This document shows positions 5,025-63,740 of a DNA stretch of 64,000 bases, piece after piece. Made by a program: the position numbers and the translations under genes. The notes under the pieces are model-generated. The model was given only the letters and a program-made list of their open reading frames with translations, had not been told where the DNA came from and searched no databases. Each line of letters opens with the position of its first letter. The stretch's first letter is position 1. The stretch spans positions 10,533,501 through 10,597,500 of the forward strand of contig OX621242.1 of assembly GCA_951640165.1 (NCBI GenBank). The letters run 5' to 3'. Origin of the DNA: Pseudoips prasinana. Taxonomy: Eukaryota; Arthropoda; Insecta; Lepidoptera; Nolidae.

Positions 5025-6300
5025 GAAAATTACTGAGTGAACAAAAACATTTTATTCTTATAAAATTATTCAATCGAATTAAATGAATAAAAATCTTACC
5101 AAATCTGATAATCAGTAATCGGTATTTCCTCCTCTAACATTAATCACACAGCGGCAACGATTTTCCATACTTAAAATTAAGGTGTCAATGTCTTGCTGGG
5201 GTATGCAGTCCCAAGTTCTTTTTAAATGTTCGAAAAGTTGTTCTTCTGTTGTCAAGTTGGGCGGAAAATCCCTCAATGCTCTTCGCTGTAACATGTCCCA
5301 GGCGTGTTCAATTGGGTTTAAGTCTGGCGACTGTGGAGGCCAATCTAATACCTGAACATCGTGTTCTCGAAGGGCGGCCCTCACCAGCCGCGCTGTATGG
5401 GAAGGTGCATTGTCATGCATGAGCTGAAATTCTTGCCCCATTAGGGCCCTGAGCGGGACAATGACACGTTCTACTACCTCCTCACGGTATCTATGGGCAG
5501 TCATGCTGCCCTGAATCCAAATGAGTTGGGTTCGTCCGCCGATTCGTATTCCTGCCCACACCATAATTGTCCCGCCTTGGTAAGAGTGGACCTCCTGTGG
5601 ATGTCGGAGACGGCTGACCCTGCCTGGAGTTCTCCAAACGCGTGTTCGTCTCGAATCTGGATGAAATCCATAGCGGGACTCATCAGTGAACAGCACCAAT
5701 GACCATTGTTGATCACTCCATGTCAAATGTTCTTGAGCCCATAAAAGTCGCCTACCGCGATTGCCACGTCGCAGCGCTGGGACTCGTAGCGGTCTGCGAG
5801 CATGAAGACCAACTTCATGCAGCCTCCTTCGCACGGTTTGGTCGCTCACCAGCAGCTGCTGACCCTCCTGGAGCCTTTGCACTAGTTGCATCGCTGTGAT
5901 ATTGGGTAGTCTTCTGGCGGTCATTTGGAGAAATCGATCCTGTCTCTGAGTGGTAACACGATATCTACCTGTGTGCCGTTCTGCCACATCTCCAGTAGCG
6001 CGATAACGTGACCACAGCCTGGATACCACATTTTGGCTTGTGCCCAGAGACTCAGCAACGACGCGTTGAATAGCACCGTTTTGTAACATGCCAACTGCCC
6101 GTAACATTTCATCTCGACTCAAATGATGGCGTGGCATGACGCTAAAAAGCTTACACAACCAATTGAGAAAAGAAAATAAAACAATTTATCAGGTTTTCTT
6201 CAATTAACACGCAAAAAAAATTTTAATGCAACTTCTTGAAATTAGATACAACTCAAGATTGCGCTGTGCTTTGCGTGTTTTCATTTGTTTCTCATTTTAA
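5025..6300 (-). mobile_element. Tc1-like DNA transposon
   Basis: Contains the complete transposase ORF 5112-6158. Edges are uncertain. A weak inverted match exists between ACTGAGTGAACAAA near 5030 and the complement of TTTGTTTCTCATTTT near 6285-6298, but it is too poor to be called confirmed TIRs. Tc1-family elements are flanked by TA, which I could not fix here. Confidence 0.65.
5112..6158 (-). CDS. Tc1/mariner-superfamily transposase, DD34E, intact
   Basis: A complete 348-residue ORF, close to the usual 340-350 of Tc1 transposases, which cut the element out and paste it at TA sites in the nucleus. In order: two helix-turn-helix-type DNA-binding regions (about residues 10-60 and 70-130; the first contains VVAESLGTSQNVVSRLW), then the catalytic RNase H-like core. 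The catalytic triad is visible: D159 in LFTDESR, D249 in MHDNAPSH and E284 in PDLNPIEHAWD. That leaves 34 residues between the last two, the DD34E signature. The C-terminus NVRGGNTDY resembles the family's usual ending. Methionines occur at residues 1 and 8, and the second (MPRHHLS) could equally be the start. No stops or frameshifts interrupt it, so it is recent or potentially active. No host gene surrounds it. Confidence 0.93.
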   Translation of the reverse strand: MCKLFSVMPRHHLSRDEMLRAVGMLQNGAIQRVVAESLGTSQNVVSRLWSRYRATGDVAERHTGRYRVTTQRQDRFLQMTARRLPNITAMQLVQRLQEGQQLLVSDQTVRRRLHEVGLHARRPLRVPALRRGNRGRRLLWAQEHLTWSDQQWSLVLFTDESRYGFHPDSRRTRVWRTPGRVSRLRHPQEVHSYQGGTIMVWAGIRIGGRTQLIWIQGSMTAHRYREEVVERVIVPLRALMGQEFQLMHDNAPSHTARLVRAALREHDVQVLDWPPQSPDLNPIEHAWDMLQRRALRDFPPNLTTEEQLFEHLKRTWDCIPQQDIDTLILSMENRCRCVINVRGGNTDY

Positions 6301-24532: not shown

Positions 24533-24655
24533 TTTATTTTAGCAAACTTTTTTCAGAGTGAGACTTATATGTAAAGGCTTATTGCAGTAGTGCTTACAGG
24601 GAGAAAGATCGGTGGGTATTTGACTGCTGAAACCATCAAGGGACTTTGTTGGTAG
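24533..24655. other. Target DNA of the LTR element
   Basis: Unassigned sequence ending in GTAG (24652-24655), the left copy of the LTR element's target duplication. Confidence 0.6.
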
Positions 24656-24907
24656 TATGACGTTCTGCAGCTTCAGATCGTCTTCGGGATCTTTTGTATT
24701 ATATAAGTAATACACGTCAAATACTGATTTAGTTGTATATTTTCTTCAATTGTACTATGATAGGTAACAGGGCTCGTGTAGCTTAGAGAGTTCTGTCGTA
24801 GACTCTATGACTGTTCTGTTTGAAATATTTTCAAACGCGTTCTTTTTTTAATGATTTCTTTTTAAATGTTTGGACGAACGAAGGTGCCAACCAAGAAGGT
24901 CATCACA
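24656..24907 (-). repeat. 3' LTR
   Basis: 252 bp, direct repeat of 28373-28624 with two differences (in TTTCTTTTTAAATG versus TTTCTGTTTAAATG, and in GGTCATCACA versus GGTCGTCACA). On the minus strand it starts TGTGATGACC and ends AACGTCATA. A TATA-like stretch (TTATATAATAC) lies within it. Confidence 0.95.
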
Positions 24908-24925
24908 TCTTCCCCGTCTCTCTTA
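24908..24925 (-). promoter_or_regulatory. Polypurine tract
   Basis: On the minus strand AAGAGAGACGGGGAAGA abuts the 3' LTR start TGTGATG. This is the usual plus-strand DNA priming site, and its position confirms the element's orientation. Confidence 0.85.
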
Positions 24926-25837
24926 AAAAAATTGTTTATTCTATTATTAGAATAAATAATTTTTTTCTCCGAAAGAACCCTTTACAACATTATACTAGCT
25001 TATTTTTACCTACCTAATGGAGGGATAATTACAATGCACGACGGCCTTTACGACTAGACCGGCAGTTTCAATTTTATCCTTATATAATGGATAACTATTG
25101 AAAGTGCCTTGTGGAAGCAAAACCTCCAAAAAAACTTTCCACTCATCATGTGTGATTCTAAGCCAAAATGTTACAAAGGTCTTATTAATAAGTTTTTGAT
25201 TAATTCTATTTATACTCTTTGCTCCTACTGTCAACCATGTTTGACACTTTCAAAAATAATACCAAATATGGAAGGGTCATAAATTAATTTTCATTATGTC
25301 ACAGATAATATTATTATAATACACGGGAGTGTCACAACAGGTATTATTGACATCATTGACCATAACGTACTATATGGGGTTACCATATAACACGTTTTGT
25401 CGACATCAAATACAACCTATATACATGGTACAACCATACACTGAGCATATCGGACATCAGCATAGACAACCTGTGGAGAGCATATTTGGTCTTATGGCAG
25501 AAAATGACAGACAAAAGGAAAAATTCTACCCGTCATACGTTGGCGTTGTCATTTAATTGCAAAGAACAAAACATGAAATCATCAGATAGATATACGTCCA
25601 CCTTGCAATGATTAATTACAATGTGTTCGAATAATCCATGATGCACCATAAAGGCGAGTTCTTGTTCAAGGCAAGCTTTTTGTGGCAAGGGCAGCGTATG
25701 CTCGTGAAGTGTGGGCGTGTAGCTAGACAATGTATGCTCATGCGTGGACGTGTGGTGATGACAGCATATGCATATGTGTGGGCGTATGATGAGAGTAGCG
25801 TATGCCTACGTGTGGTGTCAGGACCCAGAAGTCTGCC

Positions 25838-26060
25838 TTCAGACAACCAGTCTGATGTCCACCATTCCTTATGGAATTTTATGGACCATGGATATTCCCT
25901 AGACTTGTCAAGTAAAAACAAGACAAGGTGTGTGTGTGTTCATGGGAGGAGTTCTCCAATATCAGACAACCAGTCTGATGTCCACCATTCCTTATTGAAT
26001 TTATGGACCTTGGATATTCCATGAGACTAAGTGAAAACCAGAAAATGTATGTGTGTTTGT
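25838..26060 (-). repeat. Two tandem copies, about 122 bp, inside the LTR element
   Basis: CAGACAACCAGTCTGATGTC with CACCATTCCTTAT recurs at about 25840 and 25963, followed each time by GGATATTCC and a GTGTGT-rich stretch. A looser repetition (GTATGCTC, GTGGGCGTGT) precedes it at 25695-25815. Non-coding; overlapping frames are fortuitous. Confidence 0.7.
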
Positions 26061-26545
26061 GTAACAAGTTCTAAAAAGAAAACTAAATTATAACCAAAAA
26101 AGCCTAGCTCCTACTGACCTGCCCGCGACACAAACGTTAATTTATTTAATCCCTATCTATACGTTCTTCCTTGTGTGGACGTATATCCTGCTGTCTCCTT
26201 TGGATCTTCAAGCAGATCCGAAGGCTGGTCATCTTCTCCCATCATGATAGCTCTCCAATGGTATTACAACATACATGAAACAAATTAAATATTATTAGTG
26301 ACATTCTTTTAAGTAGAAGCATCAATTATAATATACAATTATATAGAGCAATATAACATAAAAATTCAAACTTCTATCACTGAGTGATAAGCAGATGTGC
26401 ACAATTTTATCAAGTACATACACGTAACACAAATTACATAACATAAGTAAACTAAAAGTAAATGAAAATTTCAGATATAATACAATAATAACATATTAAT
26501 ATTTTGTACTTTAACATTAAATAATAACCATAAGTTGTTCTAACT

Positions 26546-28276
26546 TCAACTCAATCTTATTTTACAAGACTTTAAACGATGTTGACTCCAATAGGTTAGT
26601 AATACACTATTATTACTCATATATTTTATTAAATTATTATCATTTATTAAACGTTTTAGTATTTTATATGGCCCTTTATATTGGCGAGAAAGTTTGTTAC
26701 ATACTCTAGTTACTCTTTTAGGACAACGTAATAAAACTAGCAACTTTCGTTTAGATTGGGTTCGATGTAAATTATGTTGAACTTTGCGTCTACAATTTTT
26801 GTTCAATTTTAGTGTTTGTACATTTATATTAAAATTTTTGTGTGTATTTTGTATATTATTAACCTTTATGGGCTGCAATGGGACAATATTATTTAAATGG
26901 CTATTGATTATTTTTGGCAGATCATTAATTAAATTAAATTCTACTTTACTTTCTATAATTTCCATACTTACTTCGCATGGAAGTTTATCTGTATTTGTAG
27001 TTTTTTGGCAAAAATATAAGTAATCATTCTGTGAAAAAAATTGTTTATCTGACTGGACATCAGATGAATTATTTTGTAGTACATATTTTTCTTTTTTAAT
27101 AAAATTACATGACATCCTATCAGTAAAAAGTCTACGTTTTTTAAAATCTAAAATAATATTGTGAGAAAAAAGGAAATCTTGTCCTATGACAAAATTTTGT
27201 GAAATCTTATCCACAACATAAAAACTATGATTAAACACCACATTTTCCATCAAAATGTTCAATTTAATTTTTCCTATCACCTCCAACTGCGCACCATTGA
27301 TTGATTTTATTTGTGCATTGGAGAATTGCGGCATTTCTCCTAGCCTTTCTGCCATCTTTTTATCGACAACAGACACTGATGCCCCCGTGTCAATCAGGGC
27401 TACAAAAGGGATATTTTTACATGTAATATTTATAAAAGGGGTAAACTCACACTGCTGAGTGATTTCACTTTCCGGTGGCTGTTGACTGGTCTCTTCCATC
27501 ATATTAAATGCCTCTATTGTTTTGGGTACGGCTGGCTGACGCTCCGTTGCTCCTCGTCTGTATGGAACGTAGCCTGTTGTAGAGGTGGTATCCCCTGCTG
27601 TATGGTTTCTTGGGCTAAAACTATAATGGGAAATTTTATTATCTGGTCGGGGATTAACAGCTCCTGGCGTAGGCTGGTTGATCCTCGATGCCCAAGCTCC
27701 GGTGTAGCCATGCGGACCCGGTTGACCGTCATTCACTTCGATGCGACTCACTGATATTTGTGTATTTTGTCCAACACTTCTTATATTTACGGGTAAATTT
27801 AATGACGTGTGATTTGGTGTCATAAAAAGGTTTTTAATTTGACTAAGACATGTTTTTAGGTCTTTTTTGTTGGAAAACACTTGCATTCCAACCTTATTTT
27901 TAATAAATGTGTTGCAGCTTTTAAGAAATTGGTTAATAAATATACGTTCCGTAATCGCTGTACCCGCTTTGGCAGCCAGTTCATCTAAGGAATAAAAATA
28001 GGTAACTGGGTCTTCATTGTAGCCTTGTCGCCTTTCAAAGAAGTCGGCGAGCGGACTGCTTTGCCCGTCAAATTCGTCGGTGATCTTCTTCTGCAGATCA
28101 GCAAATGTATCACACTGAGAATAAATGGTTTTATAAAATGATAAAGCGGGCCCCTGTAGATATGCCCCTAAGATGAGTTTTTTTGCATCTTCATCGTATT
28201 TGTTGATTGCGGCAATTACTGCGAATTGCCTAAAAAAATCGTTAACGTCAGCCGTTTCCCCGTCGAATTGCTCCAT
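26546..28276 (-). CDS. Gag-protease ORF fused to an integrase C-terminal tail
   Basis: Open frame of 576 residues without interruption. Residues 1-155 look like a gag capsid region (FFRQFAVIAAINKYDED, LQGPALSFYKT); no CCHC zinc knuckle is seen. Residues 185-275 are a proline/glycine-rich linker. Residues 278-385 are a retroviral-type aspartic protease: catalytic D296 in LIDTGAS and the later FVIGQDFLFSHNIILDF. Residues 386-490 resemble the spacer that normally leads to reverse transcriptase, yet no RT motif such as YxDD follows. Instead residues 505-572 match an integrase C-terminal GPY/F-type module: KLLVLLRCPKRV, LSRQYKGPYKILKRL and HRLKSC. So about two enzymes' worth of coding is missing and the junction stays in frame. 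The start ATG lies about 95 bp inside the 5' LTR. Expected product: particle protein plus protease, able to use a relative's RT and integrase (inference). Confidence 0.88.
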   Translation of the reverse strand: MEQFDGETADVNDFFRQFAVIAAINKYDEDAKKLILGAYLQGPALSFYKTIYSQCDTFADLQKKITDEFDGQSSPLADFFERRQGYNEDPVTYFYSLDELAAKAGTAITERIFINQFLKSCNTFIKNKVGMQVFSNKKDLKTCLSQIKNLFMTPNHTSLNLPVNIRSVGQNTQISVSRIEVNDGQPGPHGYTGAWASRINQPTPGAVNPRPDNKISHYSFSPRNHTAGDTTSTTGYVPYRRGATERQPAVPKTIEAFNMMEETSQQPPESEITQQCEFTPFINITCKNIPFVALIDTGASVSVVDKKMAERLGEMPQFSNAQIKSINGAQLEVIGKIKLNILMENVVFNHSFYVVDKISQNFVIGQDFLFSHNIILDFKKRRLFTDRMSCNFIKKEKYVLQNNSSDVQSDKQFFSQNDYLYFCQKTTNTDKLPCEVSMEIIESKVEFNLINDLPKIINSHLNNIVPLQPIKVNNIQNTHKNFNINVQTLKLNKNCRRKVQHNLHRTQSKRKLLVLLRCPKRVTRVCNKLSRQYKGPYKILKRLINDNNLIKYMSNNSVLLTYWSQHRLKSCKIRLS

Positions 28277-28358
28277 CTGAAATTATTTATGGAAAAAATA
28301 CTTCTCGTGATATCCTCGATTCTTCACTCGTTCTTCAGGGTATACTTATCAATATACC

Positions 28359-28372
28359 TGGCGCCAGCACCA
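28359..28372 (-). promoter_or_regulatory. Primer-binding site
   Basis: Directly after the 5' LTR, the minus strand reads TGGTGCTGGCGCCAG. TGG at the LTR edge is expected for pairing with a tRNA 3' CCA. I could not assign which tRNA. Confidence 0.65.
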
Positions 28373-28624
28373 TATGACGTTCTGCAGCTTCAGATCGTCT
28401 TCGGGATCTTTTGTATTATATAAGTAATACACGTCAAATACTGATTTAGTTGTATATTTTCTTCAATTGTACTATGATAGGTAACAGGGCTCGTGTAGCT
28501 TAGAGAGTTCTGTCGTAGACTCTATGACTGTTCTGTTTGAAATATTTTCAAACGCGTTCTTTTTTTAATGATTTCTGTTTAAATGTTTGGACGAACGAAG
28601 GTGCCAACCAAGAAGGTCGTCACA
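28373..28624 (-). repeat. 5' LTR
   Basis: 252 bp; begins TGTGACGACC and ends AACGTCATA on the minus strand. Partner of 24656-24907. Confidence 0.95.
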
Positions 28625-28720
28625 GTAGATAGCCAAGTCGAAAAAGCGTTTAGACGCTTGCTTGCCATACAATGGCTTGAAGGTAGGCAATTGGAAATCG
28701 GTAAGTAGTTCTTAATTGCG

Positions 28721-55789: not shown

Positions 55790-56222
55790 TCCTGAAGCAC
55801 ATATCACCAAGTGCAGCAGTCGTTCGGGAATGAGCTGCTCCCTCAAGAGTAGGGGTGGAAAAATTTATGGTGATATCTTGGGGCCAAGAACAACAAAAGA
55901 TTTACCGGCGCCCCAGGTTTTACTAAAAACAATATTTTGTCGCTGCACCAAGGATTGTAGCAGCAGCAAATGTGGATGTCGCAAAGCTATGCTGAAATTT
56001 TCTACTGCGTGCCTTCATTGCCAAGGAAAATGCTTCAACGGCGTGTCTTTTAGCGTCCTCGCTAAAAGACACGCCGTTGAAGCATTTTTCTTGGCGACGA
56101 GAATGACCATAAAGATGATTGAGAGCCCTCTCAGCAAGAACCACTTACCACTGAGGAAGGCGAGGAAGAAGATACCACAGAAAACGATCTTTTTCCAGGA
56201 CGCTCACGACCTAAGAGAATAA
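55790..56222 (+). pseudogene. CXC-domain protein, C-terminal part
   Basis: Frame 55830-56222 (130 codons) encodes KDLPAPQVLLKTIFCRC and then a cysteine array C37-x-C39-x3-C43-x4-C48-x-C50 ... C61-x2-C64-x3-C68, fitting the CXC DNA-binding type. Just upstream, in another frame, ISPSAAVVRE (55801-55830) is the expected preceding motif, so a frameshift is present. After CFNGVSF the frame passes through a 36-bp inverted duplication (56020-56095), so residues 75-90 are not ancestral. The tail is basic (LRKARKKIPQK) and stops at 56222, where the TIR begins. In known relatives the CXC part ends a long, probably nuclease-bearing transposon protein (recalled, not verified). Confidence 0.65.
56020..56095. 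repeat. 36-bp inverted duplication with 4-base loop
   Basis: Arms 56020-56055 and 56060-56095 pair with a single mismatch around TCCT. It lies in the CXC frame, which stays open across it. Confidence 0.9.
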
Positions 56223-57031
56223 AAATGTGAATCATTCACAGAATTGGACTTAGAAACTAATATTTAAAAACATTTTTTAATTGCACTTTTCCAGAGCCTA
56301 TAGTTTGAAAACGGATGGGAGATTGATAAGTATCAAAGTTATAGAAAATTTTATAAGCTTTCGTTTCATCTTAGAACATTTTTTGTTAAAACGCGACATT
56401 TTTGAAATATTAGCGTAAAACCTAAAATTGAGGTCTTTGTCCCCCTCCCCTCCCTCCGCTTCACCTCCTGAACATCAGGACTTTTAGTATGTTTTCTCTC
56501 GAAGTACTCTGAACAAGTTTCTGAAGAAATTGCTTAGGTTCCCGCTCACGCACTCTGCAACTACTTTATTAATTATACTATATACCAAAAAACTTCACAC
56601 TCTCTACTTTGTTTATGACCATTATAAAAATGTGAATCATTCACAGAATTGGACTTAGAAACTAATATTTAAAAACATTTTTTAATTGCACTTTTCCAGA
56701 GCCTATAGTTTGAAAACGGATGGGAGATTGATAAGTATCAAAGTTATAGAAAATTTTATAAGCTTTCATTTCATCTTAGAACATTTTTTTGTTAAAACGC
56801 GACATTTTTGAAATATTAGCGTAAAACCTAAAATTGAGGTCTTTGTCCCCCTCCCCTCCCTCCGCTTCACCTCCTGAACATCAGGACTTTTAGTATGTTT
56901 TCTCTCGAAGTACTCTGAACAAGTCTCTGAAGAAATTGCTTAGGTTCCCGCTCACGCACTCTGCAACTACTTTATTAATTATACTATATACCAAAAAACT
57001 TCACACTCTCTACTTTGTTTATGACCATTAT
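56221..57031 (+). repeat. 405-bp tandem duplication across the TIR/LINE junction
   Basis: Copy 1 is 56221-56625 and copy 2 is 56626-57031, differing by a few bases (one extra T in a T run). Each contains the right TIR and then about 69 bp of the flanking LINE (GCAACTACTTTATTAATTAT to GACCATTAT). The duplication therefore happened after the element had inserted. Confidence 0.9.
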
Positions 57032-57330
57032 ATTTTATATTTAGTAAATATGATTTACTTATTTTGCTCAAATATTGAATAAAGTGTGTCTTGCTCAAAT
57101 TCGCGGTCAGATTATTTTTATCAAGCGAATTAATTTCTATCGTATTATTAATTTCTAAGTCAAAGTTATTTAACAGGTTCTATGCCAAAACTATAAGGAT
57201 GTCGTCTGCAAACAAAGTGCATGTATAATGAGTTATATCTGGTATGACATTAATATAGAAAAGAAAAAGAGTCCATGCTTATTTACGAGATAGTCCGATT
57301 GGCAATATTTAATTAGAGTTCCACTTTCCA
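57032..57330 (-). pseudogene. Jockey-type LINE reverse transcriptase, catalytic part
   Basis: The minus strand encodes PDITHYTCTLFADDILIVL with the catalytic FADD box (57201-57212), then LDKNNLTANLSKTHFIQYLS, matching NNLSVNLTKTNFIQFS of the LINE at 61950. Reading continues across the long-TIR element into 52912-52240. An in-frame stop follows the FADD segment. Confidence 0.75.
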
Positions 57331-62950: not shown

Positions 62951-63020
62951 ATTCTATTCTATTCTATTCTATTCTATTCTATTCTATTCTATTCTATTCT
63001 ATTCTATTCTATTCTATTCT
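62951..63020 (+). repeat. (ATTCT)14 microsatellite, LINE tail
   Basis: Fourteen perfect units directly after TACAAATAAA. It makes the frame at 62841-63071 look open; that frame is not a gene. Confidence 0.95.
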
Positions 63021-63740
63021 ACATTTTCTTTGCGTAAACTCCTCTCACCTCATCTTAGTCTCAATTCGTGAAGCTCAATTTTAAAAATGTAAATATAAAT
63101 AATGTACCTACCTACCTGTATTAGGAAAAATATATGCGTTTAGTGTTATTATTTATATAATTGGGTAAATTATTTATAGTTAATTATAGGGGTCTTATAA
63201 TGTGTATCTGGGCCTTTCTAGGTCCCTAACTAAATAGCCAATTGACGATACGGCTTTCTCAGAGCTTTTATTTGGAATATTGTTTGATTTGGGTAGTTTT
63301 TGAATGAGCTTCATGATAAATCGTAAAACCATTGAGAGCTTACAGGATTTTTGTATTTGGAGTTGGGGTATTGGATGCTGAGGTTATTCAAATGTATATA
63401 TTTATAATAAATAATTATAAAAAAGATTGCCCAAAACTGGGAATTGGCCGTTAAACTGGCAACACTAAATGTAAGCTTAGCATTAAACTGAAAGCACTCG
63501 GCTAGAAGTTAACATTTGTGTTTCACTTCGTGACTCGTATGTTATTCAAAGATTTTGACGTGTATCTCTTCTTGTTTTGGTTGTTAGTTTGAGTAAAAAA
63601 ACTAGATCCATTATGAAATTGCTAGAAGTATCAATGGACACAGAACCCACATGTATAGCATAACCTATTAGAGTAATGGAACATATTGGAAGAATGATCT
63701 TTTTGTAGTCACTTGTTTTTAACTACAAAAGAACAAACCC
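63021..63740. other. No gene seen
   Basis: AT-rich; nothing assigned. Confidence 0.4.

What the first reader, a model, noticed from the sequence alone, without database searches (positions are those of the whole stretch)
24656..28624. A recent LTR element whose only protein runs from gag and protease straight into an integrase tail
Seen: 252-bp LTRs with two differences, GTAG target duplication, PPT, PBS, and one uninterrupted 576-codon ORF. The ORF holds gag, an aspartic protease (LIDTGAS) and then a GPY/F-like integrase C-terminal module (KGPYKI ... HRLK), with no RT, RNase H or integrase core. Known: internally deleted LTR elements exist, and gag-only elements with terminal repeats have been described in plants as TR-GAG. 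Inference: this is an animal counterpart in which a precise in-frame deletion left a self-assembling, self-processing particle protein that parasitises a full-length relative. The retained integrase tail might help recruit the partner's integrase.
Basis: partly seen in the sequence, partly recalled or inferred. Interest (0 to 1): 0.88.

Follow-up and report, generated by a model that had tools for sequence, protein, structure and literature searches.

The report
Trimmed retrotransposon keeping capsid and protease
A recently active family of trimmed jumping genes in an animal genome has lost its copying enzymes but keeps a capsid-and-protease gene, and it shares its ends with a full-length relative that probably supplies the missing enzymes.

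Summary
In the window's 1.13-Gb genome the 576-codon Gag-protease-integrase-tail ORF has 86 reported matches; 55 run through the junction, and 17 of 24 full-length matches have no stop. Ten of 20 LTR pairs show no substitution; 15 of 19 complete target duplications are GTAC. Gag residues 1-165 and protease are under purifying selection (omega 0.14-0.34).

A 6.5-kb relative with protease, RT, RNase H and integrase shares LTRs, PBS, PPT, leader, 3' region and target preference. Against it the short ORF carries four in-frame deletions, gained stepwise, and Gag and protease lie in one frame instead of a -1 overlap. LTRs of both types interleave on a tree (AU p 4.6e-43) while Gag/protease bodies separate with full support, as expected of co-packaged elements that recombine.

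Best reading: a semi-autonomous element making its own Gag-protease and borrowing RT and integrase. Precedents: wheat Sabrina_SA and Quinta, mouse IAP 1-delta-1. Every one of 11 long copies read has a broken pol, so the live enzyme donor was not seen. The tail's job is unproven.

The parts
28373..28624 (-). 5' LTR, 252 bp, TGTGAC...GTCATA
24656..24907 (-). 3' LTR, 250/252 identical to the 5' LTR
24652..24655 (+). target duplication GTAG (left)
   Evidence: read off the sequence
28625..28628 (+). target duplication GTAG (right)
   Evidence: read off the sequence
28357..28372 (-). primer binding site TGGTGCTGGCGCCAGG; in other copies TGGTGGAGGCGCCGGG and variants
   Evidence: tRNA-Ala as primer is inferred from L089 and recall
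28277..28356 (-). leader between PBS and ATG
26546..28276 (-). ORF of 576 codons: Gag, protease, integrase C-terminal tail
   Evidence: 86 matches in the genome
27782..28276 (-). Gag residues 1-165, capsid-like helical domain
   Evidence: model and fold comparison; omega 0.14 and 0.32 in residues 1-100 and 101-165
27527..27535 (-). about residues 248-250: place where Gag and protease frames are continuous; the long type has overlapping -1 frames here
27092..27466 (-). aspartic protease region, residues 271-395, LIDTGAS
   Evidence: omega 0.34
26888..26896 (-). scar of deletion 1 (RT, RNase H, H2C2 lost), residues 461-463, at a TAAATAA shared word
26840..26851 (-). approximate scar of deletion 2 (integrase core lost), residues 476-479
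26807..26815 (-). scar of deletion 4 (18 nt), residues 488-490
26747..26752 (-). scar of deletion 3 (42-45 nt), residues 509-510
26549..26845 (-). integrase C-terminal (GPY/F-like) tail, residues 478-576
24925..26545 (-). 3' region with an imperfect 123-bp repeat at 25839-26056; shared with the long type
24908..24924 (-). polypurine tract AAGAGAGACGGGGAAGA

Best explanation
A semi-autonomous Ty3/gypsy-type LTR retrotransposon family. It descends from a 6.5-kb gag-pol element by stepwise in-frame deletions that removed RT, RNase H and the integrase zinc and catalytic domains, and by a change at the gag/pol overlap that puts Gag and protease in one frame. Shown: anatomy, copy number, recent insertion, selection on Gag and protease, a long relative with the same LTRs, PBS, PPT and target preference, and mosaic sequence between the two types. 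Inferred: the short RNA is packaged together with the long type's RNA and enzymes, reverse transcribed and integrated by them; the short element's own Gag-protease builds or seeds the particles and favours its own RNA, which would explain the selection. That the tail holds the partner's integrase is a guess.
For: 86 matches, 55 through the junction; 10 of 20 LTR pairs without substitution and 15 of 19 duplications GTAC; omega below 1 in Gag 1-100, Gag 101-165 and protease, intervals excluding 1; long type with all pol domains and same LTR, PBS, PPT; GTAC duplication in 2 of 3 long copies; long and short LTRs interleaved, one long clade rejected at p 4.6e-43, bodies separated 100/100; synonymous difference 0.066 in Gag 1-100 but 0.37-0.44 downstream; mosaic copies L052, L053.
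Against: Each of the 11 long copies whose pol was read (of 18 loci) has at least one break, so no live donor was seen; another family (17 of 41 rows with unbroken 1163-aa frames) could be the donor, though its LTR ends differ. Gag 1-100 is shared with the long type, so its low omega may reflect selection there. The 17 copies were chosen for intact frames. Gene conversion in the genome could also mix LTRs. No expression or particle data.
Confidence: 0.78

Rival explanations
1. Pure cis parasite: the short RNA is carried by the long type's Gag and Pol, and its own ORF is a remnant that does nothing.
For: The long type has its own Gag, an unbroken 254-aa frame in L068. Tail, Gag C-terminus and post-protease part are not distinguishable from neutral among the 17 intact copies. 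A non-coding 1.7-kb derivative with the same LTRs and a GTAC duplication exists (L088), so cis signals alone may suffice.
Against: Omega 0.32 (0.18-0.52) in Gag 101-165 and 0.34 (0.17-0.71) in protease, both in parts that separate from the long type; 17 of 24 full-length matches without stop; four deletions, all in frame.
Confidence: 0.14
2. The RT and integrase come not from the LTR-sharing long type but from the abundant related family (L082 type, about 49% identical pol).
For: It has many unbroken pol frames (17 rows of 1163 aa without stop), recent LTRs (317 of 318 by the 99.686% match) and a GTAC duplication; the long copies read are all broken in pol.
Against: Its LTR ends (TGTAAT...CTTACA) and PBS differ from those of the short type, whereas the long type's agree and are exchanged.
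Confidence: 0.12
3. The Gag-protease protein acts against its relative, as a capsid poison or restrictor of the long type (Ty1 p22 is a recalled parallel).
For: Truncated Gag-containing proteins can interfere with particles (recalled). The long type seems rarer: 18 loci against 55 junction-bearing rows, both lower bounds.
Against: The short type is itself a multiplying element with exchanged LTRs; poisoning its own donor would not be favoured on its own.
Confidence: 0.06
4. Assembly collapse or a one-off deletion.
For: None found.
Against: Same junction on many contigs with independent flanks and duplications.
Confidence: 0.01

Closest known systems
Wheat RLG_Sabrina_SA, a 'semi-autonomous' GAG-Pro element (PMC9744471, passages read)
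   Same: Intact Gag plus protease ORF, no RT or integrase, high copy, dependent on an autonomous partner.
   Different: Plant; in that paper homology to the autonomous partner is reduced to a few motifs. Here LTRs, leader and 3' region are nearly the same as the partner's and an integrase tail is kept in frame.
Einkorn wheat RLG_Quinta with RLG_Cereba (PMC11302176, abstract and passages read)
   Same: Gag-bearing derivative that shares LTR parts and PBS with its partner; diverged Gag genes (about 65% DNA identity between two Quinta lineages) between flanks over 90% identical.
   Different: Plant, centromere-bound, Gag plus a domain of unknown function; no protease or integrase tail reported in the passages seen.
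Mouse IAP type 1-delta-1 (PMC6466679, passages read)
   Same: Animal; internal deletion leaves one in-frame fusion ORF; dependent on full-length relatives; the passage states that the fusion protein helps in cis.
   Different: Endogenous retrovirus; a 1.9-kb deletion fusing part of gag to part of pol, not Gag-protease fused to an integrase tail.
TR-GAG of plants (11 papers listed, listing only; definition recalled)
   Same: Terminal repeats around a Gag ORF without pol.
   Different: The listed titles are all on plants; defined by Gag alone (recalled), whereas this has protease and an integrase tail.
CM-gag of Culex pipiens (title only, in the reference list of PMC3286476)
   Same: Insect element whose only gene is said to be gag.
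   Different: Nothing beyond the title was seen.

Membership tests
Ty3/gypsy-type LTR retrotransposon (descent) | LTRs, PBS, PPT, short target duplication | tested here: met
Ty3/gypsy-type LTR retrotransposon (descent) | pol order protease-RT-RNase H-integrase | tested here: met
   Met in the long relative; the short element itself lacks RT, RNase H and integrase core. No RT tree was made, so the clade within Ty3/gypsy is open.
Semi-autonomous Gag-Pro element (Sabrina_SA type) | intact Gag-protease ORF, no RT or integrase, in many copies | tested here: met
Semi-autonomous Gag-Pro element (Sabrina_SA type) | identifiable autonomous partner sharing LTR ends and PBS | tested here: inconclusive
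   Partner type with shared ends found, but each of 11 long copies read has a broken pol
TR-GAG | Gag as the only coding domain (recalled) | tested here: not met
   protease and integrase tail present
IAP 1-delta-1 type | in-frame fusion ORF after internal deletion, multiplying | tested here: met
IAP 1-delta-1 type | member of the IAP endogenous retroviruses | not tested
   no IAP sequence was compared; the only protein with the same Gag is from Helicoverpa zea
Capsid-forming Gag | CA fold | tested here: inconclusive
Capsid-forming Gag | assembles particles | not testable with these tools
   needs protein

The most novel reading that the evidence does not exclude
A two-component retrotransposon. 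The short element has become the main maker of Gag-protease, and the long element, whose 11 copies read here all have a broken pol and whose RT bears YIDN in all 12 loci read, survives mainly as an enzyme donor, so that each needs the other. The kept integrase tail would be the physical handle between the short element's particle and the long element's integrase.
Probability: 0.1. Interest if true: 0.82.

Novelty: new variant of a known kind. Interest (0 to 1): 0.58.

Why it matters
The dependent LTR elements with their own Gag (and protease) that I found described in detail are from cereals, with IAP 1-delta-1 as the mammalian cousin. Here is an animal case with intermediates, partner and recombinants in one genome, so the route from a full element to a dependent one can be read step by step. 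It raises testable questions: why keep an integrase tail without an integrase, how particles cope when every Gag carries protease, and whether such an element robs or feeds its partner.

Tried and rejected
One-off deletion or collapse: rejected. Chance or mis-called tail: rejected. One precise deletion: rejected.

The H. zea protein P0001 as a second Gag-protease-tail element: its last 71 residues align to the integrase C-terminus hardly better than shuffles (204 of 2000 as high), so only its Gag-protease part is claimed; it is named isoform X2, so lack of RT in that gene model is weak evidence. Tail structure: model too poor (mean pLDDT 43); no fold claim. Pfam Gag model: none for the short ORF; a Gag profile reached Drosophila Arc capsids only at E 0.27-0.5. 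Selection on the tail: not shown among the 17 intact copies (0.64, 0.33-1.33); for L027 against the other 16 it is 0.42 (0.21-0.94), but L027's tail is more diverged than its protease and may have its own recombination history. No tRNA gene was called at the one PBS-like match. Phage records: no match. Literature searches for gag-only or semi-autonomous animal LTR elements gave nothing closer; a search on Asn in the Ty3 RT motif found no paper, so its tolerance is only recalled. The host species was not determined.
Full report
Observation. The element lies on the minus strand between GTAG duplications, with 252-bp LTRs differing at 2 of 252 positions, a PBS and a PPT abutting the LTRs, and one ORF of 576 codons. 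The protease is above Pfam's cut-offs; the SH3-like tail match is below its cut-off, so the tail was tested otherwise. A search of a large protein collection found one protein with the same Gag, the 441-aa Helicoverpa zea P0001 (E 3.6e-40, 29% identity over 75% of the query). A second search, padded so that long polyproteins could be candidates, found 8 proteins at E up to 1; none matches through the Gag domain. In 4 of the 8 (P0002-P0005) the match has two parts in order, protease and integrase C-terminal module. A profile of the two Gag-protease proteins then found P0001 again, two 260-aa Gag-like proteins and one weak protease match.

The genome. The ORF has 86 reported matches, with 76 of 1435 candidates scored, so counts are lower bounds. 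Of the 86 rows, 24 span residues 1-576, 17 of these have no stop, and 55 run through residues 440-500. The 30 best loci match the window copy from the LTR onward, some with interruptions such as L023, L024 and L029. For 21 copies I looked for both LTRs and found both in 20 (L004 failed). Ten of the 20 pairs show no substitution (L014 has one gap; in L015 the first 7 bases of one LTR did not align); nine have 1-4 substitutions; L016 has unlike LTRs (221 of 245 identical, 9 gaps). Of 19 copies with both flanks readable, 15 have GTAC, two GTAG, one ATAC, and the window copy CTAC in element orientation.

Selection. Among the 17 intact copies omega is 0.42 (0.33-0.53 by codon bootstrap). By part: Gag 1-100 0.14 (0.06-0.25), Gag 101-165 0.32 (0.18-0.52), Gag C-terminus 166-270 0.77 (0.46-1.48), protease 0.34 (0.17-0.71), post-protease 0.77 (0.37-1.51), tail 0.64 (0.33-1.33). 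The set was chosen for intact frames, and the pairs are not independent. L027 against the other 16 gives 0.42 (0.21-0.94) for the tail and 0.43 (0.17-1.13) for protease.

The long relative. An LTR search gave 41 matches (40 of 551 candidates scored), among them pairs about 6.3 and 5.7 kb apart. These stretches hold elements with the same LTRs and leader, a 254-aa Gag ORF in L068, and a pol with protease, RT, RNase H, H2C2, rve and C-terminal domains. A pol search gave 63 rows (58 of 6088 candidates scored). By my grouping 22 rows at 18 loci are 83% identical or more, and 41 rows at 44-54% belong to another family, 17 of them with an unbroken 1163-aa frame. LTR pairs of three long copies are 263/264, 261/261 and 247/250 identical, with duplications GTAC, ATAG and GTAC, so long copies also inserted recently. 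Yet each of the 11 long copies whose pol I read has at least one break, and all 12 long loci read for the RT motif have YIDN. The other family, read in one copy (L082), has YVDN, a GTAC duplication and different LTR ends and PBS. That Ty3-type RT tolerates Asn at the second catalytic Asp is recalled, not checked.

How the short ORF arose. Against the long type it lacks (1) the stretch from RT to H2C2, joined at a shared word TAAATAA (1761 nt between the two words in L072 by my reading), (2) the integrase core, leaving 18 residues between the two scars, (3) 14-15 codons and (4) 6 codons inside the integrase C-terminal region. Old copy L051 shows losses 1-2 only; L027 and L030 show 1-3. All four keep the frame. 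In the long type Gag and pol frames overlap by about 49 nt in the -1 relation, and the overlap ends in C CCA AAC GTG TAG, which reads as an in-frame slippery heptamer (that such heptamers cause -1 shifts is recalled). In the short type the two frames are continuous.

Exchange between the types. On an LTR tree of 30 short and 10 long copies (an eleventh, L054, was dropped because only 60 bases matched) the label needs 6 changes, and one long clade is rejected, p-AU 4.6e-43. On trees of the Gag C-terminus (44 rows) and protease (46 rows; rows covering under 70% were dropped) short and long fall on two sides with 100/100 support. Four old mosaic copies were left ungrouped: L051 falls with short, L052, L053 and L058 with long. 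On the Gag N-terminus (40 rows) the label needs 3 changes and one long clade is not rejected (p 0.06). Synonymous difference between the window copy and L068 is 0.066 in Gag 1-100, 0.44 in 101-245, 0.37 in protease and 0.41 in the tail. The 3' region of the window copy is 95-96% identical to two fully covered long copies, within the 88-98% seen for short ones; four other long loci with partial cover gave 88-90%. L053 joins long-like Gag-protease to the short junction. Template switching between co-packaged RNAs would leave this pattern; gene conversion in the genome could leave it too.

Mechanism. The best reading is a semi-autonomous element: own Gag-protease, borrowed RT and integrase. The Gag model (pLDDT 65-89 in ten-residue means over residues 1-130, low beyond) matches Arc, PNMA2, copia and Ty3 capsids best, with no Foldseek E-value at or below 0.001. 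Fusing protease to every Gag would change the usual excess of Gag; whether particles stand that is unknown. The tail is the odd part: it keeps its frame through two deletions inside it, yet selection on it is only weakly supported.

Known cases. Wheat Sabrina_SA carries an intact GAG-Pro ORF and is called semi-autonomous (PMC9744471, passages). Quinta with Cereba shows diverged Gag between conserved flanks (PMC11302176, abstract and passages). Mouse IAP 1-delta-1 makes a Gag-Pol fusion that is said to help in cis (PMC6466679, passages). CM-gag, an insect gag-only element, is known to me only by title. I met no animal Gag-protease-integrase-tail family in the searches; the library lacks most subscription papers. 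I therefore call it a new variant of a known kind.

Noticed in passing
L089 1-101 (G000:C3:40739590-40739690): Sequence like the element's 3' repeat is joined to 41 nt that read as the 3' part of a tRNA-Ala with CCA (identity recalled; ARAGORN called no gene), followed directly by the LTR end: it looks like a captured primer tRNA and suggests that the PBS uses tRNA-Ala.
   Followed up: partly
L088 (G000:C16:25736450-25738400): A 1.7-kb derivative with two LTRs, leader and 3' region but no ORF, flanked by GTAC: a third, non-coding tier of the same system.
   Followed up: partly
L071-L081 and L082: The RT catalytic motif is YIDN in all 12 long loci read and YVDN in the related family's copy L082, which sits in an unbroken 1163-aa frame; an odd motif for an apparently live RT.
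   Followed up: no
L016 with L045: The two LTRs of this copy belong to different subtypes (221 of 245 identical) though both flanks read GTAC: recombination or conversion between copies; GTAC is so common here that matching flanks prove little.
   Followed up: no
window 5112-6158 (-): 348-aa frame with Tc3-type HTH and DDE_3 domains, a mariner/Tc1-like transposase without internal stop.
   Followed up: no
window 56219-57032 and 62951-63021: A 406-bp tandem duplication at 99% and a perfect ATTCT repeat of about 14 copies.
   Followed up: no
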